Made by a program: the position numbers and the translations under genes. DNA of 29,407 nt from Tubulinosema ratisbonensis (Eukaryota > Microsporidia > Tubulinosematidae): positions 1 through 29,407 of the forward strand of contig RCSS01000652.1 in NCBI GenBank assembly GCA_004000155.1. The letters run 5' to 3'. Positions 5,744-26,047 of the stretch are shown here, piece by piece. Below the pieces are notes generated by a model that searched no databases, had not been told where the DNA came from, and worked only from the letters and a program-made list of their open reading frames with translations. Positions within the stretch are counted from its first letter, which is position 1. Each line of letters starts with the position of its first letter.

Positions 5744-6508
5744 TTAAGAATGTAAAATGACAGGTAAATTTATTTTTTCACACATTTCTTTACATTCCCT
5801 AACAATTACTTTTTTAATTTCATTATCAATTGCATCATAAGTTAAAATGTATGATGGATAATCAATCAGAATATTTTTAATAATCTCTGTTGCTTGGATT
5901 GATCCAATAATACCACACACTGATCCTAAAACACCAGCACTGCTACAATTTTCTCTTACTGTTTTGAATTCTGGGAATAGACAGGTGTAACAAGATTTTC
6001 CTTTGGGAAATACGTAAACTTGACCAGCAAATTTTAACACTGATCCCATAATCAAAGTTTTTCCAAATTTCTTGGCGTAAGCACTAATAACATACCTGGT
6101 ATTTAAATCATCAGTGCAATCAACCAATAAATTTGCTTCTTTTGCTATTTCTTCTATATTTTCCTCATTTACTTTTTTAGTAAAACATTTTACTTCCATT
6201 TCTGAATTTAAATTATTTATAAAATTCTTTGCACTTTCTGTTTTAAATTTGTTAATGAAATTTTCTTGGTGGATTGTTTGTCTTTGTAAGTTGTGTAATT
6301 CTACTTTGTCAAAATCAGCCAAAATAATTTTTTTTATTCCACTGGTACAAAGATAAGTGACCACTGGTGAGCCAAGACCACCTAATCCTACCACCAATAC
6401 AACTGTGTTACTAATTTTTTTATGGTTTTCTAAGCCTATTTCCTTTAAAATTATTTGTCTGGAATATCTTTGAGTCTCTGTTTCACTTAATGCTGTTGTA
6501 TATTCCAT
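5744..6508 (-). CDS. ThiF/MoeB/UBA4-type E1-like adenylyltransferase
   Basis: The product is a 254-residue E1-like protein that would adenylate the C-terminal glycine of a ubiquitin-like or sulfur-carrier protein (UBA4/MOCS3 with URM1 in eukaryotes, acting in tRNA thiolation and urmylation). Visible features: RYSRQI near residues 14-19; nucleotide-binding GLGGLG at 41-46; LADFDKVELHNLQRQ at 63-77; DCTDDLNTRY at 130-139; zinc pair CYTC at 173-176; C-x-x-AGVLG at 188-195; second cysteine pair C239/C243. The frame is open 22 codons further up to an ATG at 6574, but the ATG at 6508 is preferred: it directly precedes the conserved RYSRQ start and is preceded by an A-run/T-run typical of microsporidian starts. 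The rhodanese domain of full-length UBA4/MOCS3 is absent, and the second zinc pair is spaced CxxxC rather than CxxC. SAE- or ATG7-type E1s are less likely. Confidence 0.82.
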   Translation of the reverse strand: MEYTTALSETETQRYSRQIILKEIGLENHKKISNTVVLVVGLGGLGSPVVTYLCTSGIKKIILADFDKVELHNLQRQTIHQENFINKFKTESAKNFINNLNSEMEVKCFTKKVNEENIEEIAKEANLLVDCTDDLNTRYVISAYAKKFGKTLIMGSVLKFAGQVYVFPKGKSCYTCLFPEFKTVRENCSSAGVLGSVCGIIGSIQATEIIKNILIDYPSYILTYDAIDNEIKKVIVRECKEMCEKINLPVILHS

Positions 6509-8449: not shown

Positions 8450-8689
8450 TTATTTTTCTTCTTTTTCTTTTGCTCTTCTATTTTGAAACCAAATGACAAT
8501 ATTTTTCTCTGGGATAAGAAACTCCTTCTCTAATATCATTTTTATCTCATAAGTAGGATATTTGTTATGCTGGAAGTACATTTCTAAAGCTTTTTTCTGG
8601 GCATAGTTTAGTTTTATTCTATTTCTTTTCGGTGGTTTGTTTTTAGAATAAGATTTTTTTATTTCTTGAGTTACGTCAATTATTTTCAT
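8450..8689 (-). CDS. minimal homeodomain transcription factor
   Basis: The 79-residue protein is almost entirely a homeodomain (about residues 20-79). Visible: basic N-terminal arm KRNRIK (21-26), helix 1 around AQKKALEMYFQ (30-40), NKYPTYEIK between helices 1 and 2, and recognition helix 3 with the invariant W67, F68, Q69, N70, R71, R72 of the W-F-x-N-x-R signature, then AKEKEEK. It should bind DNA in the nucleus as a sequence-specific regulator. It has no other domain and no extension, so partners or dimerisation are unknown. It lies 32 nt upstream of the RRP42-like gene on the same strand. The unbroken spacing between YP and the recognition helix indicates a typical (60-residue) rather than TALE (63-residue) homeodomain. 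Confidence 0.93.
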   Translation of the reverse strand: MKIIDVTQEIKKSYSKNKPPKRNRIKLNYAQKKALEMYFQHNKYPTYEIKMILEKEFLIPEKNIVIWFQNRRAKEKEEK

Positions 8690-8870
8690 GAATATTCAAA
8701 AATTTTTTTCTTTTATGTTTTGTGTAATTTGCTTCTTTTTGTTAAAAAAGGATGTTTTTTCCTTCCTTTTTTTCTTTTTAAATTTAATTTGTTAATTTTT
8801 AGTTCTTTTTTGGAAGATTCTTTTTTGAATTTTGATTTGTCATTAAAATTAAAAANAATAACATTTTAAT

Positions 8871-10790: not shown

Positions 10791-10929
10791 TGGGTAAAAA
10801 TTTTTTTAAATTTTTAATTTAAAAAAAAAATAAATATTAATTAAGGATGATTTATTTAAATATTTTCTTTAGCATTCGCTTTTATTAAATTTCACACTTT
10901 ATTTCTCTAACACCCTAAAAAACCCTGTC

Positions 10930-11110
10930 ATATAAATAATACAACAAGTTTATAAATATTTTTGATTTGCTCTTCTTCTAAAGCCAGGCACTAAGAAGAA
11001 TATTTTCTTTTATTTTGTTAAGTAATTTTCGATGGGATTTAGAAGCGAAGAGTAAGGTGACATGACTAATTTTTTGATTTATTATTTAAAATAAAATTTT
11101 TGATCATAAA
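10930..11110 (-). mobile_element. decayed DDE transposase fragment, IS630/Tc1-mariner superfamily
   Basis: On the minus strand at about 11078-11020 the sequence encodes VMSPYSSLLNPIENYLTK. This matches the DDE_3-type block L-P-P-Y-S-P-x-L-N-P-I-E-N-x-F-S-K with the usual spacing to the third acidic residue (E of NPIEN). Further downstream, interrupted by stops, GFRRRANQKYL could be the C-terminal basic helix. Upstream sequence is too decayed to read. This is distinct from the hAT relic next to it, so two elements have landed in the same interval. Confidence 0.55.
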
Positions 11111-11269
11111 GCATCTATGAAATCTAATATTGTTTATAAAATTACGGCGCTAGAAGCTTCAGCAAGTTTTTAATTTTTATTTATTTAATATTATTTTATT
11201 ATGTAAAATTGGATTTTTATCGTTTAGGGGGCTACAGAACTTAACCCTCATGAAATTAAATATGATTCG

Positions 11270-12560
11270 AACTAAAGCCGTATCCTCTAAAATTTTTGTT
11301 GATGCAGAAAAAACAACTCTTGAAGTCTTTAGATAGCTTACAGGCACTAACAAACTCCTAGTACTTTGGTAAAAAATAAATAATTTTCATTTTAAAACAT
11401 CATGTTAGTTATATCAGAGAAATTAACCAACATTGGTTTTTTCATTCATAGCAAAATCGATTTGTATTAAATCTAAAAATCTTTCCTTTAAATCTAATGA
11501 TAAAGAGTGCAGATGATCCATGATTATCAATATCGCATAATCGTATACCTCGCACTTTCGAAGCCAATTAAATTGTTTAAAATTTCTTTGATTTTTTTAG
11601 TTTTGTAGTAATTTAACTTGGGTGACAGATCCAAATCTCTTTGTCTTACCATCAATTAATGTTTTTTTGGACTCTGAAGTTGTTTATCGAAAATGTTAAA
11701 CTTTTCAATAAATCGGCTAAATATTTTAAAAACTCTTTGCCATCGGGCATATTCCGATATTTCATCTCAGCCTTTTATGCAAAACCGCTGATAACATTAA
11801 AAAGTGTCAGAAATCCTTTTAAACAATTCCCTTTGGATAACCATCTTACTATGGTATGGTATAAAAGTTTTACATGATCTTTGCTTTTTTATTTGCAAAA
11901 CAATTCTAAAAGACATTCAGCTTTAGCACTAACTTTTTACTGAACTATACAACTTATTACCATATTTAGTATACAATTAAGAATCAGTGAAATGTTTTTG
12001 CCAACTAAATTTTCTCTGTGAATGACACAATGTATAAGCAACATTTGTGGATTGTCATCTTTTAATAATTTAAGACATCCGTTTTTGCCCATCGTATTTG
12101 GTGCTTCATTGTGTAACAAGAAATCATACTTTTTATAGATTTATCGTGAAGAAACAAGTAGTTTCTTAACTCGTTATATATGTCTTTTGATGTTTTGGTA
12201 CTTTGTAGCTTTTCACAAAAAAGCATTTCTTCTACAAATTCATCGTTTTAAATATATCGTAAATAAGCAATTAATATTGCTTCGCCATCTATAAATGTTG
12301 ATTTACCGTTTGACCTGAGAATTCTTGTGATTTTACTTCTGTATTAATTGATTCTTAACATTCTCGTTCATTCTACTTATTTTTCTACTAACCGTGTCTT
12401 TACAAAGAGTAATATAGTTTTGGCTAATTAATTGTCTTTTCCAGTTAAGAATTTAATAAACAAATAGTTGCGGGGTTTAAAAAATTTTCTTTTATGGTAT
12501 GAGCCTTTCTGTATTAAGCTATAAGTAACAAATTTGAAAGTAACTTAAGAATACTAGATT
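11270..12560 (-). mobile_element. decayed hAT transposon, ZBED5/SCAND3-like transposase relic
   Basis: The relic reads in order on the minus strand with stops and frame changes. First FVTYSLIQKGSYHKRKF (about 12540-12490) matches the family's S-Y-L-x-A-Y-x-I-A-K-x-x-K-x-H. Next come DGEAILIAYLRYI and NDEFVEEMLFCEKLQSTKT (about 12300-12190), the R-Y-V-x-x-x-x-x-x-E-E-x-L-F-C block. Then at 12119-11937 come NEAPNTMGKNGCLKLLKDD and LIHCVIHRENLVGKNIS, the D-G-A-P-x-M-x-G-x-x-x-G and H-C-x-I-H-R-x-x-L-x-x-K-x-L blocks. Finally DLKERFLDLIQIDFA lies near 11500. The catalytic aspartates of two blocks are altered. The 97-codon frame at 12751-13044 has C-x-x-C spacing and may be a rotted BED finger. 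Confidence 0.85.
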
Positions 12561-13316
12561 AGCTTATGGATTTAAAATTAAAAACAGAGTTTAAAAAGAT
12601 TCCATTTATAAATTGTTCTTTTAAGTTTTATAAATAACTCAAATTAGTAATTACATGATTGCTATGGTCTGTTTTAAGGTGTTTATCTATTTTACACCGC
12701 TTTTTGATTTATTTTGTCGTTGTTTAATACTTCTTTATTCAAATTAGGATTCATCCTGGGTTAATAAATAAAATATTTAAACAATTATTTTTGTAGAAAA
12801 TATCCGTAGATATTTCCTTTACATTTATTAAACATTTATGGCATAACCAACAGAAAAGCACCGTTCTATCATTTTCAAAAAGAATAAATCTGAAATAAAG
12901 AAAATGCGTAGAATACTGAGTTAAGTTTCTCTTAATTATATTTTTTATAGTACAAAAATTTTGATAAAATAGAACAAATAACATAAAAATAAGATAAAAT
13001 TTATAATACTCTTTTATTTTTAATAATTTTCTAGAGTATATCATTTTGCTAAAATATGAAAATGAAAAATTTTAAATAAAGTACCATTGAAATAAATATT
13101 AAGAAAAGTAAATTAAAGCTAAATTTCAAATTGAATATTTAATTTTTGTAAGATTGTTTATAAAAAGTGTTTGTAGTGTTGCAGGGAAATATTTTTTAAT
13201 TTTATTTTTATATTTTTAATATTAAAATATTTTAAAACAATTATCCATGAATATGCAGGGTAAGAAACAATTTTTAAAGAAAAATGATACTGACAGCTTT
13301 TATTTTAAATCTACAA

Positions 13317-13370
13317 GTAAGGACACGAGATGACTGATCGACATTTTCTTTAGTAACAAGTCGTCCTTAC
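13317..13370. other. 54-nt imperfect stem-loop with GC-richer arms
   Basis: GTAAGGAC (13317-13324) and GTCCTTAC (13363-13370) are perfect inverted repeats around a 38-nt loop that is GC-richer than the surroundings. No known small RNA class was recognised. Confidence 0.35.
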
Positions 13371-15638
13371 ATGATCTCAACAGAGTTTCTTAAAACTCTT
13401 AATTTTATTTATTATTATGCATCTCAACTATATTTTTATGATATTTTTAATTGTAAAAATCTTCTTCTTTGTTACATTGTTAATTTTTACAATACAAAAA
13501 TTAATAGATCATACTTTTTTTTATTCAATTTTTAATCTCTGTTAAACTTTAATATTTATGCTCTTCTGCTTTTATTTTCGATTGCAAATTAATCTTAAAG
13601 GTATATTTTTATAGTATGCTTCGGAGAGACAAAAAATTCAGGCTTTCATTAGAAATCTTAAATTGCCCACAGATAGGGTTAAGCCCGACTTTAAGAAGTA
13701 CTAATCAAAATTCAATTTATAGTTTCTTATTTTGCTATACTCCTATATTCATTATGATTTTTCTTTTTGTTTTATTATAAATAAACTTTAACTTAAAATT
13801 TAAACTACAAAATATTTTTAACCCCTTTTTAGATAAAATTAATAGTAAACGATAAGATTTTATTTCTGATTGATAAAAATAACAATAGCGTTTTTTTAAT
13901 CACGGAGTTAATTATTTTTGTTTGTTGTATAATAAATATTTTGGCACTGAAAATAAAATTTAAAAAGCCATTTTGAACAATTCATAATAAATTCAATCTT
14001 GATTATTCAAAGAAATCTAAAATTTAAGTAAAAAATTGTTTTTAAATTTTCTATAACAAATCATCAAAGTTTTTTACAAACCTAAACAGAAACATAAAGT
14101 TGCAATAATACCATCATTTATAGTACCATATTATTTCCAGGCTTGAAACAAAAAACCATTGCAGATGTAGAATTAGTCTAAAACTACGTTTGATTCTGCT
14201 GATATCTTTAAAAAATATAATAATAAATCAAAGTATAAAAATAAAAACACTAAAATAATCATACAGGTTGTTACAAGAATATTTATAGTCAAGAAAATTT
14301 TTTATAAGCTGAATCAATAATATTTTAAATAGTATATTCTTTCTGTTACAAATAAATTAATTTACAGATATAAATAGTTCATATCAACATAATTTTGCAT
14401 TTAAATCATACTTTTTGATATATAACATATAAAAAATTAAATTGCTACGATTAAAAGATATGACAGAGGAAAAGAAGCATTTTATCATTCTATAAATTTA
14501 TTAGATATGTAAAACTAGATATAGAAAGGCTAGCAAAGATTAAAAAAAGAAGCTTTAACATCTATTGGTTATAAAAAAGATATCTTGCTAATATAGATAG
14601 AATTCAATATTCTAAAATTTATTTAATTTCTTTGCCTCATATAACGAAAATGTTATGTAAAAAGATTGATTTTAAACACATATTTGAAATCAAAAAATAA
14701 ATAAAAATAAGTAAAAAAAAGCACATGGAATATTAAAAATAATTTTAGAAAAGCAGGCTGTTTCAAATTTTTAGACGGAAAAAAATTCAGAGGATAAAAA
14801 ATGTAAGAATACATTGAAAATTTTTAATGTATAAAATAAAAAACTAGGAGCAAATAAAATAAAAAATTTTATTGGAAAAAAAATATTCGCAGTTTTTATA
14901 TAACACAATAAATTAAACATTTTAAATTACTAAAAAAATTCTAGACTTGTAAATTTAATAATTAACATAATCATTTTCAGACAAAATTACTGTATTTATT
15001 TTCTTATACGTTTATTTTAAAAGGTTTATACATAATTTCATTAAAAAAACTAAATCAAAGCAATTCATGTTCTTATTTTTATTTGATTTATAAATTATTT
15101 ACAGTTTTCGTTAAATTTCAACCAGAAATTATTATTAAATTTAAATCAGATTTTAAAGAGGCTACTACAATATTTTAATATTTATCTTTATAGAATATTT
15201 CTTTTCCAAGTAACTTTATTTTTTTAGTTATTTTAATTTTAAAAAGAAAAAAATGTAAAGTTCTTAATTTTAGCAGATAAATGAATGATAAAAATATTTT
15301 ATTTATTATTCTACATTATCTAGCATACAATAAATAATCTTGTTTTTAGAGTTCGTTTTAACAAAACATATGCACAATAAATTTTTTCATTCCGAACTTT
15401 ATTATTTTTTAATATATTAAGTATGTAAGTGTTTTTAGCAAATAACTAAATAAAACACTTTCCGCAACTATTTATGTTAATTTTTATTTATCCTAAAAAA
15501 TTAACTTCATCTATGTGCCGAAAAAATATTAACAACAGGCACAAATATTTAATACTTTTTTTTATTTAAGAATTACTATATTATAAGATCGAGTTTTTCA
15601 TATTTTATTTTTTTGCATACTTTTAAGATGTATATTGC

Positions 15639-15678
15639 ATGACATAAATTTGATGTTTTTTTATAAATTTTATGTCAT
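15639..15678. other. inverted repeat hairpin in the desert
   Basis: ATGACATAAATTT and, after a short spacer, AATTTTATGTCAT form a near-perfect palindrome with one extra T in the right arm. Function is unknown. Confidence 0.5.
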
Positions 15679-16705
15679 ATTATTAAATACATAAATTCAT
15701 TTTACTTTTCAACTTTTTTTCTATAAGTTATTCAGTAATTAATTTTTCGAATACTTATTTTTATCTAATTTAAAAAGGTATTTATAAATTTTCGAGTATT
15801 TTTGCATTATTAAAAATGAAATTATATTTTTTTACTATTATTTCCAAAGCTGTACTTTTTTCTCTAAAACTCATTATCTTATGCCATCTTTTTCCCAGTA
15901 TTAATAAATGATATAATACTTTTTCGATTTTTAATTATTATTTTAGTAAGTAAACTTGAAATTTTTCAAGATTCTAATTTTTTGAAAAAAATTAGAAAAT
16001 AAATTATTTTTACATATCAAAGTTATTTTTTAAAGCACTGTATTCATTATTAACATATTTTTGTAAAACCTTTGTTTTTTTATCTTTACTAAAGATCTCA
16101 TAATTTATATAAAGACTCGTATGTATTTTTTTACATTGAAATATATTTTAGATTACTTAGCCGTGGAAAATTTTTGAACCATTCTTAACACTTATACCAT
16201 GAACGAAGTGATTTTAATATTAAGAAGTGAATTCTACAAAAATATTTAAAATAGAGGTTGGTGAGTAAAACTTGAATTTTTGAAGAAATATATCAAAAAT
16301 TTAATGAATAAAACTTACAAATGCAAAAAAAAAGTAAAAAACATCATATAAATAGTTTTGTAAGCAATGCAAATGTAAATTAGCACTTATAAATAAAATA
16401 TATAAAATAACTATTCTATTTTCTAAAAAAAACTGTTAATTATAAACTTTATTTCAACTTATTAAATTCACAGTATATTATATGTAGTAAAAATAAATAA
16501 CTTATTATTAATTGATTCCTAGAGAATATATTTACTAAAAGCATTCTAAGTCATATAATATTTTCATGTTTTAATTATTTATTAAAGTAAAAGTTTATTA
16601 AAAGTACATAGTTAAAAAAATTAATTTACAAATCAAATCTTAAAATTATAAAATTTTTTAGAAAAAAGATCTAATAAAGTTTCTTAAATAATTTTTAATG
16701 AACTT

Positions 16706-17683
16706 TTAATCTCCTCCAGGTATTACTCTATGATATTCTGCATATTTTTCATACACAACCACCAATGGACAAGGTATTATTATAAATTTACTTGATTTAT
16801 TGTCATTCATAAACTCAGTCCATTTACTATTTTCATATAAATATGCATGAACCTTTCTTCTTTCTCTGGTTAAAAATCCAACAGCTCTGTAAGAACAAAC
16901 TTTGTGTTGATCGATATATTCAAATTGATATACTTTCTTCATATCTAAAAACTCTACCTTTTTCCTCTTTATTAAATCAACATTGAAATAAAGATACTTT
17001 GGATATAAGCTATTAAAACTCAAATCTGAATGAAAAACGTTTTTCTGTGGTACGTCCTCATGTAAAAACTGTCTTGTATCGATGGATCGAAAAAAACTTA
17101 AAGCAAAGTTTAATTTATTATCTTTTCCATACCATTTATCAAAAACAAAATTTTCTTTCAGTAATGGATTATTCTGATATCTGTCATACAATTTTTTTCC
17201 ATTTGGATCTGTTAGAAACTGACCTAATATAAAAAAAATTCTGAAAAAATAGGTTTGAGTCAATACACCATCAGGGTAAGTTGTATCATCTGGGTTAAAC
17301 AAAATTCTTTTTAATTCATTCAAAGCTTTAACCACTTGCTTTTTATCACTGGATGATTGATCAAAATGATCAAATATAATGCAAAGATTTTTTGCTAATG
17401 GATGCTGTATATGACGCATATGCTGTTTGGTTGAATAATGTAATAATCTAGCTATCCCCATCAATCTTGTTATTTCTAATGTTTCTTGTAAAAAATCTTT
17501 TTGTTTTTTATTTTTCGGTAAAAGTTTTGGATTATCTTTAACTTGTGTATCATCTAAAGTAAGATCTGACATTAGTTCATTTTTTGTTCCTAATGAAGCT
17601 AAACATAGTTTTAAAGTTGATGCGACTACCCATAAAAGGACTATTTTCTTTTTTAAATTATTCTCTTTATAATTTGTATCCAT
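16706..17683 (-). CDS. secreted family protein, copy 1 (degenerate USP-like)
   Basis: The 325-residue product has an N-terminal signal peptide (KKKIVLLWVVASTLKLCLA, likely cut after A29), so it is probably secreted into the host cell or the vacuole. The mature part has a helical half (GIARL at 76-80, TYFFRIFFILGQFL at 144-157) and a C-terminal block LYPKYLYF (226-233), DQHKVCSYRAVGFL (258-271), YLYENSKW (281-288), PCP (304-306) and EKYAEY (312-317). This block follows the order of a USP/UCH protease C-terminal lobe: P-K-x-L-x-F, then Y-x-L-x-G, then Y-x-x-Y-x-x-x-x-x-W, then Y-E. The Cys box (GNTCY-x-N) and the G-H-Y-x-x-Y histidine are missing, so it would be a pseudo-enzyme. The USP relation is inference. 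The ATG is preceded by CCC and TGATAAG. Confidence 0.85.
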   Translation of the reverse strand: MDTNYKENNLKKKIVLLWVVASTLKLCLASLGTKNELMSDLTLDDTQVKDNPKLLPKNKKQKDFLQETLEITRLMGIARLLHYSTKQHMRHIQHPLAKNLCIIFDHFDQSSSDKKQVVKALNELKRILFNPDDTTYPDGVLTQTYFFRIFFILGQFLTDPNGKKLYDRYQNNPLLKENFVFDKWYGKDNKLNFALSFFRSIDTRQFLHEDVPQKNVFHSDLSFNSLYPKYLYFNVDLIKRKKVEFLDMKKVYQFEYIDQHKVCSYRAVGFLTRERRKVHAYLYENSKWTEFMNDNKSSKFIIIPCPLVVVYEKYAEYHRVIPGGD

Positions 17684-17690
17684 GATAATA

Positions 17691-17724
17691 GGGTTATTTT
17701 CTTAAAATGTTTATAAATGATAAG
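17691..17724 (-). promoter_or_regulatory. shared family promoter, copy 1 (TGATAAG-24-CCC)
   Basis: Read on the plus strand, GGG (17691-17693; CCC on the coding strand) is followed 24 nt further from the gene by TGATAAG (17718-17724). The same pair with 23-nt spacing precedes the other two family members. TGATAAG is the consensus site of GATA-type zinc-finger factors. It lies 35 bp from the ATG. Confidence 0.7.
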
Positions 17725-17783
17725 CGAACAATGATAAATTATAAAATTATAAAATTTTTATTATTTTAAAAATATTCAAATTT

Positions 17784-17829
17784 AAGGGGATTTTAGTAAT
17801 ATGATAAGATAAAACTTATAAATGATAAA
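17784..17829. promoter_or_regulatory. second conserved upstream block shared by copies 1 and 2
   Basis: AAGGGGA, ATTTT, then ATGATAAGATAAAACTTATAAAT recur, with small changes, upstream of copy 2 at 20931-20967. It lies about 100 bp upstream of copy 1. It could be an upstream promoter element or a remnant of the duplicated flank. Confidence 0.5.
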
Positions 17830-19870
17830 ATATTTAAAAAAATATAAAATTTAAGAGATAAAAAATTTTAAATATAATTTCATTTTGAAGTATTTTTTAA
17901 ATTTTATTTTAATTGTTTTAGTAAACAAAGATTATTAAAGCAAAAATTTGAAAAAAAATTTGATAAATTATTAAATTTTATAAAAATTTATTTCAAATTT
18001 AAACTGATTTTGAAAATTTTCTAAACTGATAAAAACATACTAAGCATATTTATTTTTACAGAAATCTTTATGTAAAAATACACAATTTTTCAAGCCTTGC
18101 TGTATTTATTCTATTGTTTAAAATTTATAAAATTATTTTTTTAAAGTATTACTTATACAAAGAGATTTATAAAGTTTAGTATAATAAACATATACAAATA
18201 ATAAAATTTAAATTTTTATATGTTACAAATATAAATGTTTTTAGTGTAAAAATCATTAGTTTTAAAAAATAATTTAAAAATTTTTATTTATTAAATCTTG
18301 GCTTTATGTTTTTATGAAATCTTTAGTATTGAAATTTGTTTTAGGAAGGATTCATCAAAAGGGCTAATTTATTTTTTCAATTTTAATTATTATTTTGTTT
18401 ACAGTTTTGAAAAGAATCATAATGTTTTTTATTATAAATTAATTTTTATTAAATAATAAAAAAAATTAAAGTTTCAATAAAACTATTTATATCTTCAAAA
18501 TTTTAATATTTTTTATTATTTAATAAAAATTAATTTAAAAAATCGGTATAAAAATGCATAAAACGAATGCTGTCAAAATATTATACATAGACATTATACT
18601 TATTTATGATGTAAAAATATTAAAAATTATTAAATTTTTAAAATTTATTTCTTATAAATTGAAATCTTAATGATGAAGCATAAGTTTATGAAATAATTTT
18701 TTATAAATTTTAAATATTAAAAAACAAATTTCATTTAAAAAAACTTTATTTTTTATACTAAAGCATAACCATTCCTTACTTTATTTGTTTAGAATTAATT
18801 TAAAAAAATTTAGATATTAAAATTAGCCATATTGCTTATAAATCTGTATTTATGAAAATTATACTTTTATTTTAGCATTTCGAAATAAATCAAAGCTTCT
18901 TTTTTTTGTTATAAACTAATATATTTTTAACATATCCGCAAATATTTTTTTTATAAAATATGATTTTTAAAAATCAAAATACAAACTTAAACAATCAGTA
19001 ATTTTTTTTTACTATGTTTATTATCACATTCTATTTTTTTGTGCAAACATGTCATAATAATTTTTATTTTAGCATAATTTAAAACAAACAAGACAGTGGT
19101 AATCTTAATTTATGAAAGAAACCTTAATTAAATTAAAAAAAAATTTAGATTATTTCTTTTTTTGTTGTTTGGATATTTAAAACCATACAAAAATTTTTTT
19201 TAATATAATTTTTAAAATATTCATAAAAAACGCTTATTTTTACAGTACATTTTATTATGATTTTCTATTTTTTAAATTAAATATGTTTTAAGTAAATTTT
19301 TTAAAAATTATATTAAAAAGTATTTCTTAAACAAATATTCAATAAATTTTAATGGTTCATACTTTAACACATATTTATAAATGAGTTCTTATTTTAGAAA
19401 ATAAATATAAATTTTTATTTACTTATAAATGGATTTTTTAAAATTTTTAATTAAAAATTAATTTTAGTTTTTATCTTTTCTATTTAAAATTATCTAAAAA
19501 TTTGAGTGATCTAAAAAAAATTTTTTTTTAAATGTTTCTGTAAAAATTAATTAAAAAAAAATTCAAATTTTTGATTGTTTATTTTTAGTTATAAAAATAT
19601 TCAATTAGAACTACAAATAAGTAATCCACAAATTAAAATTTTTTTGTATATTTTTTATCAAAAGTATAAATAAACAAATTTAAAAAGTGTTAAAAATGTT
19701 TATAATGAAAATTTAAAATAAAAAATTAATATTTTTTTTAAATCAAAGTTATAAATATTATCAACTTTAATAAGAAAATAAACAAATTTATACTTAAAAT
19801 TCAAATTAATTATCTTTTTTTTTAAAAAATCATATGAGTTAATTTTTTATTTAATTTCCTATATTGATAT
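17830..19870. other. 2-kb AT-rich gene desert between family copies 1 and 2
   Basis: No gene is visible. It contains a 29-bp perfect inverted repeat (18435-18537) and repeated CTTATAAAT words (18651, 18834, 19422). Confidence 0.5.
18435..18537. repeat. 29-bp perfect inverted repeat with 45-bp spacer (foldback/MITE-like)
   Basis: The left arm 18435-18463 starts TAAATTAATTTTTATTAAAT and continues AATAAAAAA. The right arm 18509-18537 is its exact reverse complement. A perfect 29-bp pair is unlikely by chance even in AT-rich DNA. No ORF is inside. It could be a foldback element, a MITE remnant or a transcript hairpin. Confidence 0.75.
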
Positions 19871-20854
19871 TTATATTTTCTCAGATAAATTTATACGATA
19901 TTCAGCATATTTTTCAAACATAACAACTGTAGGACAAGGTGTTGATTTGTTAAATTTAACTTGTTTATTATTAATATACCTTCTCCATTCATTATTCTCA
20001 TTCAAATACGAATACACTTTTCCTTCCTCCTCGTTCAAAAATCCAACAAGTTGATAAAAACATACTTTATTTTGATCAGTGTATCTAAAAAGATATTTTC
20101 TATTAAAATTAATACATTCAAAAAGTTTTCTGCTATCTTTATGTACAATAAAATAAAGATATTTTGGATATAAACTATTATACATATATTTTGATTTGAA
20201 TACATTTTTTTGAGATGTTTTTTGTGATAATAAATCTGTTGAATCGATGAATCTTAAATGATTTATAAACGTTTGTGGTTGTTGATCTTTAAGATGAAAC
20301 TTTTCTAAAATAAAATTTTCATTTAAAAATGGATTGGTCACAAAAGTATTAAATAAATCATTTTCAGATGAATCTATTAAAAATTCGCCTAATTTTAATA
20401 GAAGTCTAAAAAAATAAGTGTAAACTTCTGTTTCATGTACACAAAGATTATCTGTTTCTTTGTATAAGATATTATTTAGTTCTTTTACTGCATTAGTTAC
20501 TTGTTTAATGTCAGTTAGTGATTCATCAAGAAATTTAAAAATTACAATAAGATTATCTACTATTGGATGCTTAATTTCACTCATAGAGTTTTTAGCGGAG
20601 TATTTGAACAATCTAGCAATACCAAATATTATTGTAAATTCTTTAGATTCTGGCAAATAATCTTGAGGTTGTTGATTATTTTGTGAACATTTAAGATGAT
20701 CATGAACTTTTATAATTTCTAAAGTCTGATCTTGAACTAATTTTCCTTTTATTTCTGGAGTAGCCAAACATAGCTGTAAAAATGATGAGATTAGAAACAA
20801 AAATAGTGCTAATTTACATAGATCAATTTTTTTGCAATCTTTATTTTTAATCAT
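19871..20854 (-). CDS. secreted family protein, copy 2 (degenerate USP-like)
   Basis: This 327-residue paralogue of the 16706 and 25026 genes is about 2.2 kb from copy 1 on the same strand. The signal peptide is LALFLFLISSFLQLCLA near residues 14-30, likely cut before TPEIKG. Conserved landmarks: IFGIARLFKYSAKN, VYTYFFRLLLKLGEFL, SLYPKYLYF, YTDQNKVCFYQLVGFLNEE, VYSYLNENNEWRRYINN, PCPTVVMFEKYAEYR. The FYQLVGF and ENNEWRRYI segments are the clearest USP-like features, but the catalytic His position is not retained. Copies 1 and 2 are more similar in their C-terminal third than in the middle, consistent with a fast-evolving secreted protein. The ATG is immediately preceded by ATCCC. Confidence 0.85.
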   Translation of the reverse strand: MIKNKDCKKIDLCKLALFLFLISSFLQLCLATPEIKGKLVQDQTLEIIKVHDHLKCSQNNQQPQDYLPESKEFTIIFGIARLFKYSAKNSMSEIKHPIVDNLIVIFKFLDESLTDIKQVTNAVKELNNILYKETDNLCVHETEVYTYFFRLLLKLGEFLIDSSENDLFNTFVTNPFLNENFILEKFHLKDQQPQTFINHLRFIDSTDLLSQKTSQKNVFKSKYMYNSLYPKYLYFIVHKDSRKLFECINFNRKYLFRYTDQNKVCFYQLVGFLNEEEGKVYSYLNENNEWRRYINNKQVKFNKSTPCPTVVMFEKYAEYRINLSEKI

Positions 20855-20887
20855 GGGATAAAAAATAATAAATTTTACATTGATAAG
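20855..20887 (-). promoter_or_regulatory. shared family promoter, copy 2 (TGATAAG-23-CCC)
   Basis: GGG at 20855-20857 (CCC on the coding strand, touching the ATG) and TGATAAG at 20881-20887, 23 nt apart. The flanking bases ACATTGATAAGCAGATA are nearly identical to those upstream of copy 3. Confidence 0.75.
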
Positions 20888-20930
20888 CAGATAATATTTA
20901 TAAATTAAGTTATAAATAAATTAATTAAAA

Positions 20931-20967
20931 AAGGGGAAATTTTGATGGTAAAATAAACTTATAAATC
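20931..20967. promoter_or_regulatory. second conserved upstream block, copy 2
   Basis: AAGGGGAAATTTTGATGG followed by AAACTTATAAATC parallels the block at 17784-17829 upstream of copy 1. It lies 77 bp upstream of the ATG. Confidence 0.5.
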
Positions 20968-22826
20968 AAAAATAATCACAATAAATTCAAATCGAAATAT
21001 TTTTATTTACTTTTTTTACTATCTTAATTATTAAATCAATAAGATTTTTTTATTTTTGATTGTTTTTTAGTTAAATAGAAAAAAAGAACCTTAAAATTTT
21101 AAAATAGTCAAAGAAATATTTTAAAATATTTAACTCAATATAAGTACATAATATGATAAAACTAATTTGAGTTTAGAATTGAATTGAAGACTATAATTTT
21201 TAAAATAGATTATAAGTTGTTAACTTGCATTACAGACTGTAATACATTTTAAATCTAATATTTACAGATAAAACTATCTGAAAATTTTTAAAATATAAAG
21301 ATAAAATTATTTAAAGTTCATTTATTTTATTGTCAAAAAAACCAAACTTAATATTAATACTTATTAATTTTAAAATTTGATGTAACTTATATTTATATTA
21401 CAAATTTTTAAAAATTTTTTTGTTTCTTTAAGATTAAACAACAAATCGAATATCTTATAGACCATAAAAAATTCAAATCTTAAAAGTAAATAAAGAAACT
21501 TAATTTTACTTATATAGAATTATACAATCAAAAAAAAGATTAGAAAAAGTGTTTATTAAAATATTATAGCATTTATTTTTTTTGTATTATTATGACAAAC
21601 ATAATCTATGTAAAAGAAGTATAATGTTTTAATCTTTTATACTTTTTTTGATCATATTATTTGGAAAAAAAAATTTAAACTGTAAAGATAAGAAATATGT
21701 TACAATATTTTAAATAAAAAATTCCTCAGTTTTAATGTAATTTTAATAAAAAATATCTCTTTCTAATATGAAAAACTCGATGCAAAAAATATTTCTTACG
21801 AATATAAATTTAGCATTTAAAAATAGAGTTTCATAATTCTTTGAAAAAATCTCCTTTTTTAACAATCTAAAATTTTATTTTCTCCTCTATTTAACTTTAA
21901 ATCAAACCTTTTTGATATTTTTTAAAATCTAATAACCCCAATAAATTTATTTCTATTTATTTTATATAAAAATTTAAATTTCTCCTTTGAATCTTTTTTC
22001 AAAGTATATTATTTTAATTATTTGTTAATCCTTCTCTTCAATTCTAAATTATAGCATATTAGTATTCATTTTAATTTCTCTCTTATGAATCTATATTTAT
22101 TGTTTAATTTTAACAGCAACATGTTTTGAGTTTAAGGGTGTTGGAAATTTTTACTGAGTTATTTGTTAACGTCTTGTTTTATTTCTTTTATAATTTTAAA
22201 AACAAACTTCAAAAAAGTTTTTCCAAGATTTTTTGTAATGCCTCATTTTGATCAATAAAAAAGGTTACTTAGACTAAGAAAAAATCTTAATATCGAAATC
22301 GTTTTTATGAAAGTTTTATATTAAATGAGTCTTATTGTTTTTTATTAATATTCCAAAAAATCTAATTCCAAAAAATTTTTAAAATTACTTTCTATAAAAA
22401 TCAAAGAAGATTGATATGCTACATTGTTAAGATATAAAATAAGATTTTTGTTTGTAAGTTATTAACTTAAAATACTCATCGAAAAAAATAATTTGATAGC
22501 TTTTTTGTGATTAGCAAACTATCTGAATGTTTGAATACACGTTCTCTTAATTTAGGAAGCAAAAAATATAAAATTTTTAGTTAATAAAAAGATTATGATT
22601 TTTAATTTTGATTCTGCCGAAATAAAAAAAATTTATATTTTTTATAAAAAATATTTATTATGCCATTGTTTTAAATTTCTTAAGTTCATTCAAAAACATT
22701 ATTTTTTCATAAAAAAATTAACATCAATGCTTGTATTATTTATTTATTGAAATTAATTTGTTTAAAAAACAGAGTTCTTTTATGAAAATAATAATAAAAA
22801 ACACAACTAATCTAAATCATTCTTAT
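20968..22826. other. AT-rich desert upstream of copy 2
   Basis: No open frame, RNA gene or transposon motif was recognised. The region has frequent A/T runs. Confidence 0.5.
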
Positions 22827-23020
22827 GGATCAATCTGAATCATTAGCGCCTACAGAAAAAGGAATTTTTGAAGTATTTTGATATATTAAATTTGACAAAA
22901 ATTTAACATCAGAAAAATACAAATATCTTTGTCTTAATAAGAGGTGTTTAAGACTTAACGTTATTAGAAACATGTCTTTTTTTAAAAAAGACAGCCAAAT
23001 AGCATGCAAAGCTTTTATTT
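22827..23020 (+). mobile_element. decayed N-terminal fragment of a Merlin transposase
   Basis: An ATG at 22827 begins MDQSESLAPTEKGIFEVF, then after a stop the frame reads YIKFDKNLTSEKYKYLCLNK, followed by RCLRLNVIRNMSFFKKDSQI. The C-x-x-x-x-C...(S/N)-V/I-R-K/N-x-S-F-F pattern matches the zinc-finger/SIRKGSFF start of Merlin transposases such as the copy at 4802-5590. Nothing readable follows, so only the N-terminus survives. Confidence 0.5.
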
Positions 23021-23904
23021 AATTTATATTTCTACTTTGTTACTTATTTTTTGGCTGAAAATTCCAAAAATTCTGAAAATTTTCCATAGCATATTTTAAT
23101 AAGCAATCATACTTCAGTAAAAACAATATTTTAAGTAATTTTTAGAATAAAATTTTAGGATGTTTTATGATTCTACACCATTTTTTTATATTTTTATAAA
23201 ATCTAATGTAAAATTTAATAGTTCACAATAAATGTAAAAGTGAGATTTGTATGTTATTTTCTTTTAATAGTTTATGATATCTGGTTTTATATGAGATTAA
23301 ATGATCTAAATTCTGATCTGTTAGATTAGTATTCATAAACAATAAAAAAATTTTTAATTGAGTACCTATTATGGTATTTAAGCTCTTAAATCTTATTCTC
23401 TTGTCAGCTGGCATTCCTTCTTTTTTTAATGACAAAAAATCGGTTCTATGGGTTTATATGTTTACTTCATTGTCTTTTTGAAGATAAAAAAGAACAATCT
23501 AATGACAATATTAGATATGTCTCTTTTTTTTGTTAAATTTTTTTTTATAAAAGTTTTATTAAATAAGTTATAAAAAAAAAAACTTCATCATGTAAAAATA
23601 AATAATTAAAATAATATAAAACGAGCCAAAAAAAATTATAAAATTAAAATTGTGTTTAATAACCTTGTCTGTTACACATAAATTAGGATAATTAAATTAG
23701 ATTTTTATGGTGTTTTTAAGTCATTATTTAATCAACAAAAAAGCTTGTAGGTTTTAAGAATAAAGTTTTGTTTCATATTTACAAATTTTAAAAGTTTTAA
23801 ATTATAATGTAGATAATTACAGTTTTTAAATCACTAAGATCCTACCTGAAATGTAATATGATTGCATTAATCACTATAATTTTAGTATTCATCTTATATG
23901 TATT
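23021..23904. other. AT-rich intergenic stretch, no supported gene
   Basis: A 70-codon minus-strand frame (23223-23435; begins MSLKKEGMPADKRIRFKS) exists but has no recognisable family and no CCC/TGATAAG start signal. It may be part of the decayed Merlin copy's surroundings or chance. Confidence 0.35.
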
Positions 23905-24122
23905 GTAACCAAAGCCTGCAAGATAAGGTAGACTTAGGCAGTTGATAGAGTGCACGGGGGTGGGTTTTAGCTGATGAAAGGCTCGCAGTATCTTGAGCTA
24001 TACCAAAGTATGGGAAACATATTTTACCGTATGTTTCCATCGACTAGGTATAACTACTCTCATAAAGAAGGTATAGCGAAAAGATCTCCGTATGGATTTC
24101 CCATCCCTAGGCAAAAAAAAAC
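23905..24122 (+). repeat. dispersed structured repeat, left copy (short form)
   Basis: A GC-richer element starts ACCAAAGCCTGCAAGATAAG and contains GTGCACGGGGG, TTGAGCTATACC, a perfect hairpin (GGAAACATA with TATGTTTCC) and CGACTAGGTAT. It ends CCTAGGC followed by an A-run at about 24112-24121. The reverse complement of 29407-29026 has the same landmarks in the same order. The A-run end suggests an SINE-like or other retroposed RNA, but no tRNA-type A/B box was found. Confidence 0.75.
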
Positions 24123-25025
24123 CTTGTATGTATTTTAGCATACAAAATTGGTTTACCTTTTCTTTGTCTTCTATGATTTATAAACAAGTTTTGCTTTGAA
24201 ATTTTATTACAGCAAACATTAGAATCTTTGAATATTTCGTTCTGATAAATTTTTTATTTTTTAATCAACTGATTTATTAGTTGAAGTGAAGACATAAAGA
24301 AAAAGAGTTGACAATATGATAAGAGCTTTTTAAGAAATATGTTTAAAACTAAAAATATTAAATTAAGATGTTTTTTATGGAATTTTATTTTAAATAGAGA
24401 TGAAAACTCTAAATCTCGCTGGGTTGAGATTAAAAAACTTAGAAAAATGCATTTTTAATTTTTATGTTATTATAGCACTTTTTCATAATAATTTAACCAA
24501 TTATAATATTTCCACAATAGCTCTGATAAATCACCTTAATTGTGTTAATATCATTTATCCTTAAAAGGTGAACTTTAATCACCTTCTACAATTCGAAAAA
24601 TAACAACAAAAACAACCTAAATGCGCTGATTAATAAAATGCTTTTTATATCTACTTTAATTTTTTAAAATTTTATATTTGTATAATTTAAAATATATAAT
24701 TTTGTATATTTAGTAATTAAATACGATCTAGTAGAGCTTCCACCTAATTAACAATAAAGTTAAATTGTTATCTAGCGTTGATACTCTATTAGCCGAAGTT
24801 CGAGGCTTGTATATGCTGTATTGAGGTAGTGTATCATACATTTGAAATCTAATCAAGTAAGAAAATTTAAAATTTCAATTTTAAAAAAACTTCTTACAGT
24901 TTTTAAACTATTTAATAAATAAATTAATTCAAAAAAAATTGACATTTATGATTTAGAAAGTAGTGGTATCATTATTTAAATAAAAATTATATTGGGTCTA
25001 ATCTAGAGTTTAATTTAATAGCTTA
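24123..25025. other. AT-rich stretch downstream of copy 3
   Basis: No gene. An imperfect palindrome around GCCGAAGTTCGAGGC lies at 24779-24836 (TGATAC at one end, GTATCA at the other). Confidence 0.45.
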
Positions 25026-26003
25026 TTAATTTTTAATTCGTTCAGATGGATTACGGCGATATTCAGCAAATTTTTCGAACACTGCTGCGAATGGAACTCG
25101 AATCAATCTTCTTTCTTTTACCTTTTGGTTAGAAATATATCTATTCCACTTTCCATTTTCTTTTAAATAACAACTAACACCAGTGAAGTCTTCGGTCAAA
25201 AATCCTGCAAGTTTATAAAAACATGTTTTATTTTGATCTGTAAATCTATAAANATATTCCCTTTCTAAACTGAAAAATCTTGGCCTTCGTTCTTCATCTT
25301 CTAAAATACTAAAATAAAGATATTTTGGATATAAANTATCGAACTCTGTTTTTGATTTAAAGACGTTTAAGTGTGCAGGTGAATGATCTAATAACATTTT
25401 TATATCAATGCAACCTGGAGATTCTATGCATGCGAAATGATTATTTTCCCTGCTAGAACATCTTAATAAAACAAAATTTTCTTTTAAAAATGAACATTTC
25501 ATATAATTTTCATACGCAGAATCTCCAACTGGATTAGATAAAGAATCTCTTAGCTTTACAAGGATATCAGCAAAATAAATTCTGTCTTTTTTTTCATAAG
25601 AAAAATTTCTATTTTCCTCGTTTTCTAAAAGTTCGTATAACTTTTCAATGGCTTTATGTACTTTGTTTTTGTCATTTTTTGGTTCTGAAAAAAAATTAAA
25701 AAGAATACAAAGGTTTTTTGCTATTAAGTGTTTCATATTACTTATATTTTTTCCTGCTGTATATCTAAATAATCTAGCATATCCTAGCATTCTTGTTACA
25801 TCATAAGAATCTGATAAAAAATCACAATGAGTAAAATTATCTTGTAACGATTCTAGATTATCTTGGACTTCTTGGTCATCCAATGAATGATCTGTCTCGA
25901 GTTCGTTTATAACTTCTAAAGATCCTAAACATGGTTTTAAAATTGAAACAATTATAAATAAATAAAGCAAAAAGTTTCTAAAGTTTTTTCTTTGATGATA
26001 CAT
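25026..26003 (-). CDS. secreted family protein, copy 3 (degenerate USP-like)
   Basis: This is the third, most diverged paralogue, 325 residues. The signal peptide is FLLYLFIIVSILKPCLG near residues 11-27. Landmarks kept: MLGYARLFRYTAGKN, LYPKYLYFSILEDEE, RFTDQNKTCFYKLAGFLTED, CYLKENGKWNRYISN, then PFAAVFEKFAEYRRNPSE. PCP is replaced by VPF, and the middle has several extra cysteines. Two N bases (25253, 25336) fall inside the gene as single uncertain codons and the frame stays open. It lies 125 bp downstream of the RNase P RNA gene on the same strand, so its promoter sits in a very short gap. Same signal peptide, motifs and promoter as the other two copies; function unproven. Confidence 0.83.
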   Translation of the reverse strand: MYHQRKNFRNFLLYLFIIVSILKPCLGSLEVINELETDHSLDDQEVQDNLESLQDNFTHCDFLSDSYDVTRMLGYARLFRYTAGKNISNMKHLIAKNLCILFNFFSEPKNDKNKVHKAIEKLYELLENEENRNFSYEKKDRIYFADILVKLRDSLSNPVGDSAYENYMKCSFLKENFVLLRCSSRENNHFACIESPGCIDIKMLLDHSPAHLNVFKSKTEFDXLYPKYLYFSILEDEERRPRFFSLEREYXYRFTDQNKTCFYKLAGFLTEDFTGVSCYLKENGKWNRYISNQKVKERRLIRVPFAAVFEKFAEYRRNPSERIKN

Positions 26004-26013
26004 CTCAATAAAA

Positions 26014-26047
26014 GGGGTAAAATTTGAGAATTTTTAACATTGATAAG
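26014..26047 (-). promoter_or_regulatory. shared family promoter, copy 3 (TGATAAG-23-CCCC)
   Basis: GGGG at 26014-26017 (CCCC on the coding strand) and TGATAAG at 26041-26047 are separated by 23 nt, the same spacing as copies 1 and 2. The element begins ACATTGATAAGAAGATA. Confidence 0.75.

What the first reader, a model, noticed from the sequence alone, without database searches (positions are those of the whole stretch)
16706..26003. A secreted three-gene family that looks like degenerate, catalytically dead USPs
Three 325-327-residue paralogues share a signal peptide and a C-terminal block (LYPKYLYF; Y-x-L/A-x-GFL; YL-x-EN-x-W; EK-Y/F-AEY) in the order of the second half of a ubiquitin-specific protease, while the Cys box and catalytic His motif are absent. 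A secreted pseudo-protease family could bind host ubiquitin or act as host-targeted effectors. Signal peptides, paralogy and motif order are seen in the sequence; the USP relation is inferred.
Basis: partly seen in the sequence, partly recalled or inferred. Interest (0 to 1): 0.8.

Follow-up and report, generated by a model that had tools for sequence, protein, structure and literature searches.

The report
Secreted dead-deubiquitinase family in microsporidian
A microscopic parasite of fruit flies carries a small cluster of genes for exported-looking proteins that seem to be shaped like enzymes that remove the tag ubiquitin but have lost the parts that cut, so they probably bind something rather than cut it.

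The parts
16706..17683 (-). Paralogue A, 325 aa, secreted USP-fold pseudoprotease
   Evidence: model of this paralogue low confidence
17594..17683 (-). signal-peptide-like N-terminus of A (about residues 1-30)
   Evidence: hydropathy and charge; cleavage site inferred
16985..17008 (-). LYPKYLYF strand of A
16820..16891 (-). His hairpin of A, Y265 to W288, spacing 23; one His (H279) not shared
17691..17724 (-). CTTATCA element plus CCC signal upstream of A
19871..20854 (-). Paralogue B, 327 aa, USP fold predicted (pLDDT 68.8, pTM 0.68)
20762..20854 (-). signal-peptide-like N-terminus of B (about residues 1-31)
   Evidence: cleavage site inferred
20150..20173 (-). LYPKYLYF strand of B
19985..20056 (-). 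His hairpin of B, Y267 to W290, spacing 23, no His
20855..20887 (-). CTTATCA element plus CCC signal upstream of B
25026..26003 (-). Paralogue C, 325 aa (two codons with N); the only one of the three that the anchored USP L003 matched in tblastn at E <= 1
   Evidence: not modelled
25923..26003 (-). signal-peptide-like N-terminus of C (about residues 1-27)
   Evidence: cleavage site inferred
25311..25334 (-). LYPKYLYF strand of C
25146..25217 (-). His hairpin of C, Y263 to W286, spacing 23, no His
26014..26047 (-). CTTATCA element plus CCC signal upstream of C

Best explanation
The three genes encode secreted pseudoproteases with a compact ubiquitin-specific-protease (USP) fold that have lost the catalytic Cys and His. 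Shown: ORFs, paralogy, CCC signals, absence of the catalytic residues, a His hairpin shorter than in USPs of the same genome. Supported by prediction: USP fold (one paralogue well, one weakly), entry into the secretory pathway with the domain translocated. Inferred: descent from the genome's membrane-anchored USPs by duplication, loss of catalysis and change of topology; release into the host cell or onto the parasite surface; action by binding a protein (a ubiquitin-like modifier or a former USP partner) without cutting it, as a decoy or blocker.
Confidence: 0.5

Rival explanations
1. USP fold kept only as a protein-binding scaffold: no contact with ubiquitin or a ubiquitin-like protein, as for the PAN2 pseudo-ubiquitin hydrolase.
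For: PAN2 chains are among the best structural matches; the His hairpin has spacing 23 against 27-32 in L001, L002, L003 and P0004, which should change the site for the ubiquitin tail (inference); no CxxC in the finger zone (also none in the five USP-like proteins tested there).
Against: No partner known; compact fingers are shared with L002, L003 and P0004, which keep Cys and His.
Confidence: 0.2
2. Parasite-internal role: lumenal protein of the ER, spore wall or polar tube, not delivered to the host.
For: A signal peptide alone does not show export to the host; no localisation data.
Against: Lineage-specific, fast-evolving families with targeting signals are typical of host-exposed microsporidian proteins (PMC5423893, passages and section 10); NG86 dN/dS about 0.53-0.70, a crude figure with dS 0.83-0.99.
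Confidence: 0.15
3. The USP resemblance is false: another alpha-then-beta fold.
For: Weak sequence signal and a low-confidence model for A.
Against: Two models, of A and of B, both put USPs on top; the profile-profile score beats all 200 shuffles with the small USP set and, narrowly, all 100 with the larger set (23.1 against 21.7).
Confidence: 0.12
4. An active protease with relocated catalytic residues, for example with the invariant Thr of helix 1 or the Cys shared by A, B and C (C263/C265/C261).
For: Thr72/74/70/207 is invariant in 4 of 4; one Cys outside the signal peptide is shared by the three window proteins.
Against: That Cys is missing in L009 and no His is invariant in the four-member alignment.
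Confidence: 0.03

Closest known systems
Ubiquitin-specific proteases (Pfam PF00443, UCH)
   Same: Predicted fold, order of helices and strands, order of C-terminal motifs
   Different: No catalytic Cys or shared His, Asn/Ser in place of Asp, shortened His hairpin, no PF00443 match, signal-peptide-like start
Membrane-anchored USPs of the same genome, L002 and L003 (TUBRATIS_29710), and the relative P0004
   Same: Similar length (307-315 aa), N-terminal hydrophobic segment, compact finger zone (50-53); L003 has FPKYL where the family has YPKYL (L002 has TPEIL)
   Different: These keep Cys, His and Asp and match PF00443; L002 and L003 have a more hydrophobic anchor with somewhat more positive charge after than before it (+2/+3, +1/+5), suggesting the domain stays on the cytosolic side (inference)
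PAN2 pseudo-ubiquitin hydrolase
   Same: USP fold without ubiquitin hydrolysis (titles; biology recalled)
   Different: Intracellular, part of a deadenylase with a nuclease domain (recalled); the window proteins show one domain and a signal-peptide-like start
UCH-domain proteins among predicted host-exposed microsporidian proteins (PMC5423893)
   Same: UCH is among the commonest domains of predicted host-exposed proteins outside the large families (section 10 read)
   Different: Named there by Pfam domain, which the window proteins do not match; loss of catalysis is not discussed in the passages and section I read

Membership tests
Ubiquitin-specific protease (USP, peptidase family C19; label recalled) | USP fold (thumb helices then beta palm) | tested here: met
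Ubiquitin-specific protease (USP, peptidase family C19; label recalled) | Catalytic Cys at the start of helix 1 (Cys box) | tested here: not met
   No Cys from -15 to +19 around the invariant Thr in 3 of 4; one at -10 in C, not shared. Exact register of the Cys place is uncertain.
Ubiquitin-specific protease (USP, peptidase family C19; label recalled) | Catalytic His in the His box | tested here: not met
   No His between the conserved Y and W in 3 of 4; H279 in A only
Ubiquitin-specific protease (USP, peptidase family C19; label recalled) | Asp or Asn as third residue | tested here: inconclusive
   Asn in 3 of 4, Ser in C; Asp in 6 of 6 USP-like comparators. Asn is allowed in some USPs (recalled).
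Ubiquitin-specific protease (USP, peptidase family C19; label recalled) | Match to PF00443 above the gathering score | tested here: not met
   PF00443 not listed for A, B, C at E <= 1, nor for L009 at E <= 0.01
Ubiquitin-specific protease (USP, peptidase family C19; label recalled) | Deubiquitinase activity | not testable with these tools
   needs purified protein
Microsporidian host-exposed protein | Signal peptide or transmembrane segment | tested here: met
   By hydropathy and charge only; no signal-peptide predictor was available
Microsporidian host-exposed protein | Clade-specific | tested here: inconclusive
   Only A and B themselves returned from the protein database; how many microsporidia it holds is unknown (one search shows P0003 of this species)
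Microsporidian host-exposed protein | Physical presence in the host cell | not testable with these tools
   no localisation data
Large gene family as defined in PMC5423893 (10 or more members in one genome) | At least 10 members | tested here: inconclusive
   4 intact members and broken copies at 2 places in the held 4.12 Mb; the published assembly is 7.56 Mb

The most novel reading that the evidence does not exclude
A parasite has turned a membrane-anchored deubiquitinase lineage into a set of secreted, dead USP-fold proteins that capture host ubiquitin, SUMO or another modifier and so block modifier-dependent host responses: a secreted pseudo-deubiquitinase decoy family.
Probability: 0.22. 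Interest if true: 0.85.

Novelty: new variant of a known kind. Interest (0 to 1): 0.57.

Why it matters
If right, it shows a parasite using the shape of a deubiquitinase without its chemistry, in a family that a Pfam-based survey of host-exposed proteins would miss, in a parasite of Drosophila, where host genetics is strong. The same genome keeps intact, sub-threshold and undetectable stages of the apparent decay, so the path from enzyme to pseudoenzyme can be followed.

Tried and rejected
Sequence-only proof of the USP relation failed: Pfam (the only matches were chance-like, the lowest being AnfG_VnfG for C at E 0.0048, 17.5 bits against a cut-off of 27), PDB by profile (three hits at E <= 10, none a USP), HMMs both ways against shuffled and reversed decoys (best family member 2.5 bits against a best decoy of 6.0 among 1004; best USP 2.1 against 14.5 among 1506). 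Adding viral USPs to the USP profile lowered the hhalign score from 37.8 to 23.1. hhalign against the three-member L003 group alone gave 0.8%. The 12 protein decoys were single sequences, the family a four-member profile; the fair comparison is with single family members (17.2-23.9 against at most 16.6 with the small USP set; 18.5-23.7 against at most 17.4 with the larger). PF13423 (UCH_1) found nothing in the genome, but nothing rang in the control genomes either. A scan of viral contigs for relatives of L001 confirmed none.

[quoted passage not shown] ratisbonensis and no role for them in controlling it.

The shared promoter element was tested as a marker of a wider secreted regulon: the pattern gives 11 rows, 9 distinct places in the held genome counting C117/C118 as one, against 1 match of the reversed control; 4 of 9 are followed within 60 nt by an ATG that opens a frame of at least 296 codons, the three window genes and one unrelated-looking 410-aa protein. 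The longer form CTTATCAATGT is found only before B and C. No regulon is claimed; common descent of the three genes explains the sharing as well.

Papers: the listings show no report of a secreted pseudo-USP in microsporidia. They cover open-licence PMC text only; others (5 of 6; 12 of 766; 8 of 11; 10 of 7,056, none listed holding the term Anncaliia algerae) listed only part; supplements were not read. PMC9552668 (passages) says that in microsporidia only one DUB, an OTU protein of Nosema bombycis, has been partially characterised.

Full report
WHAT IS THERE. The window is contig C197 of a held 4.12 Mb, 236-contig assembly. A USP-like protein on contig C228 of the same assembly (L003) is identical to a record named TUBRATIS_29710 of Tubulinosema ratisbonensis (P0003), so the organism is that microsporidian parasite of Drosophila melanogaster (PMC6675976, first of two parts of the text read). 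The published assembly is 7.56 Mb in 952 contigs, so every genome count here is a lower bound. The three ORFs lie at 16706-17683 (A), 19871-20854 (B) and 25026-26003 (C), minus strand, 325, 327 and 325 aa, A sharing 40% and 34% identity with B and C, B and C 36%. Each has a CCC signal 0-10 nt before the ATG, as do 4 of the 7 other ORFs examined in the window (uL4, TAF10, RhoGAP, 9391). All three also carry CTTATCA 30-31 nt upstream of the CCC.

SECRETION. The first hydrophobic segment is moderate (19-residue Kyte-Doolittle mean 2.0-2.2, against 2.4-3.3 in the anchored relatives L002, L003, L009, L020 and L021), preceded by net positive and followed by net negative charge (+3/-1, +4/-1, +4/-4), and ends in CLA or CLG before Ser or Thr. 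That fits cleaved signal peptides with the domain translocated. L002, L003, L020 and L021 show more positive charge after the segment than before (+2/+3, +1/+5, +1/+3, +2/+4); L009 is balanced at +3/+3. By the positive-inside rule (recalled) the domains of the first four may face the cytosol. These are inferences from composition; no signal-peptide predictor was available.

SEQUENCE. PF00443 is not listed for any of the three at E <= 1. hhalign of the four-member profile against five own-genome USP-like proteins gave 42% and, with P0004 added, 44.8%, score 37.8; 0 of 200 column shuffles reached it (best 22.1) and the reversed profile scored 13.4. Single family members against the same profile scored 17.2-23.9, 12 other proteins of the genome at most 16.6. 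With viral USPs added the family profile scored 23.1 (1.6%), barely above the best of 100 shuffles (21.7); against the L003 group alone it gave 0.8%. HMMs in either direction did not beat decoys. BLASTP of L003 with C gave E 4e-4 for that one comparison, in register with the YPKYL and Y-x-L motifs, and L002 with C E 0.005; in tblastn L003 matched C (E 0.013 for the window) but not A or B at E <= 1. So the sequence signal shows only against the closest USPs and is not proof by itself.

THE CATALYTIC SITE. USPs have Cys at the start of helix 1, His in a G/N-H-Y box and an Asp or Asn (recalled). In the family the start of helix 1 has an invariant Thr and no Cys from -15 to +19 in 3 of 4 (one unshared Cys at -10 in C). 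Between the conserved Y and W of the His hairpin there is no His in 3 of 4, and one unshared His in A. The hairpin spacing is 23 in 4 of 4, against 27, 32, 28 and 28 in L001, L002, L003 and P0004, and 28 and 29 in the dead L020 and L021. The residue at W+5 is N, N, S, N in A, B, C, L009 and D in 6 of 6 comparators. The finger zone is 50 residues in 4 of 4 and 47-53 in L002, L003, P0004, L020 and L021, without CxxC in any of these nine (anchors chosen by eye from the alignment).

A DECAY SERIES IN ONE GENOME. PF00443 finds L001 (no N-terminal anchor segment seen), L002 and L003 (both anchored). L003 has two paralogues, L020 and L021. L020 has Ser or Ala at the Cys place and lacks the His; L021 keeps a Cys but lacks the His. 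L020 falls below the Pfam cut-off (18.7 bits) and L021 shows no match at E <= 0.01. The window family looks one step further. L009 (C94) has an anchor, a linker of coiled-coil look and the same dead domain; C158 and C188 hold broken copies. NG86 dN/dS of about 0.53-0.70 (dN 0.47-0.58, dS 0.83-0.99) suggests weak purifying selection, a crude estimate at this divergence and base composition.

WHAT IT PROBABLY DOES. UCH domains are among the commonest domains of predicted host-exposed microsporidian proteins outside the large families (PMC5423893, section 10 read), so USP-like domains at the host interface have precedent. A secreted domain without catalysis most likely works by binding. Whether the partner is ubiquitin, another modifier, or neither (as for PAN2) is open; the shortened His hairpin should alter the ubiquitin-tail channel (inference). 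My odds: USP fold about 0.85, dead about 0.95 given the fold, host-directed about 0.6, modifier binding about 0.35.

NOVELTY. Pseudo-USPs and microsporidian host-exposed UCH proteins are both known. A secreted, lineage-restricted dead-USP family was not in the listings named in Tried and rejected. I file it as a new variant of a known kind, not as a member of the USP enzymes.

Noticed in passing
L020 (G000:C86:8239-9042 -) and L021 (G000:C7:23075-23986 +): Two membrane-anchored paralogues of an intact-looking USP that have lost catalytic residues; L020 is below the Pfam cut-off and L021 has no Pfam match at E <= 0.01.
   Followed up: yes
L009 (G000:C94, ORF 946-2298 of the locus): 450-aa protein with N-terminal anchor, linker of coiled-coil look and the same dead domain as the window trio.
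   Followed up: yes
17691-17724, 20855-20887, 26014-26047: CTTATCA (its reverse complement holds GATAAG) 30-31 nt upstream of the CCC signal in all three genes; 9 distinct places in the held genome against 1 for the reversed control.
   Followed up: partly
L031 (G000:C190), ORF 1546-2778 of the locus: 410-aa ORF with the same CTTATCA-CCC arrangement and a hydrophobic start; no likeness to the trio seen by eye.
   Followed up: no
L018 (G000:C134:590-829 +): Fragment 49% identical to the anchored USP L002, in a frame open for only 127 codons.
   Followed up: no
8450-8695 minus: 81-codon open frame with a homeodomain (Pfam E 1.2e-14), missed by an ORF list cut at 100 aa.
   Followed up: partly
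5744-6508 minus: 254-aa ThiF-family protein (Pfam E 8.7e-68), perhaps an E1-like activator for a ubiquitin-like protein, in the same window.
   Followed up: no
G000:C117 and G000:C118: Two contigs of equal length (13236) with the same pattern match at the same place; probably duplicates in the assembly.
   Followed up: no
G000: The held assembly is 4.12 Mb in 236 contigs, the published one 7.56 Mb in 952, so copy counts are lower bounds.
   Followed up: partly
P0004: Relative of L003 (47-49% identity) on a 1911-base contig of an unnamed source; points to a related microsporidian in other sequence data.
   Followed up: no
10806-16705: Gene-poor stretch of nearly 6 kb; the longest stop-to-stop frame within it has 106 codons.
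   Followed up: no
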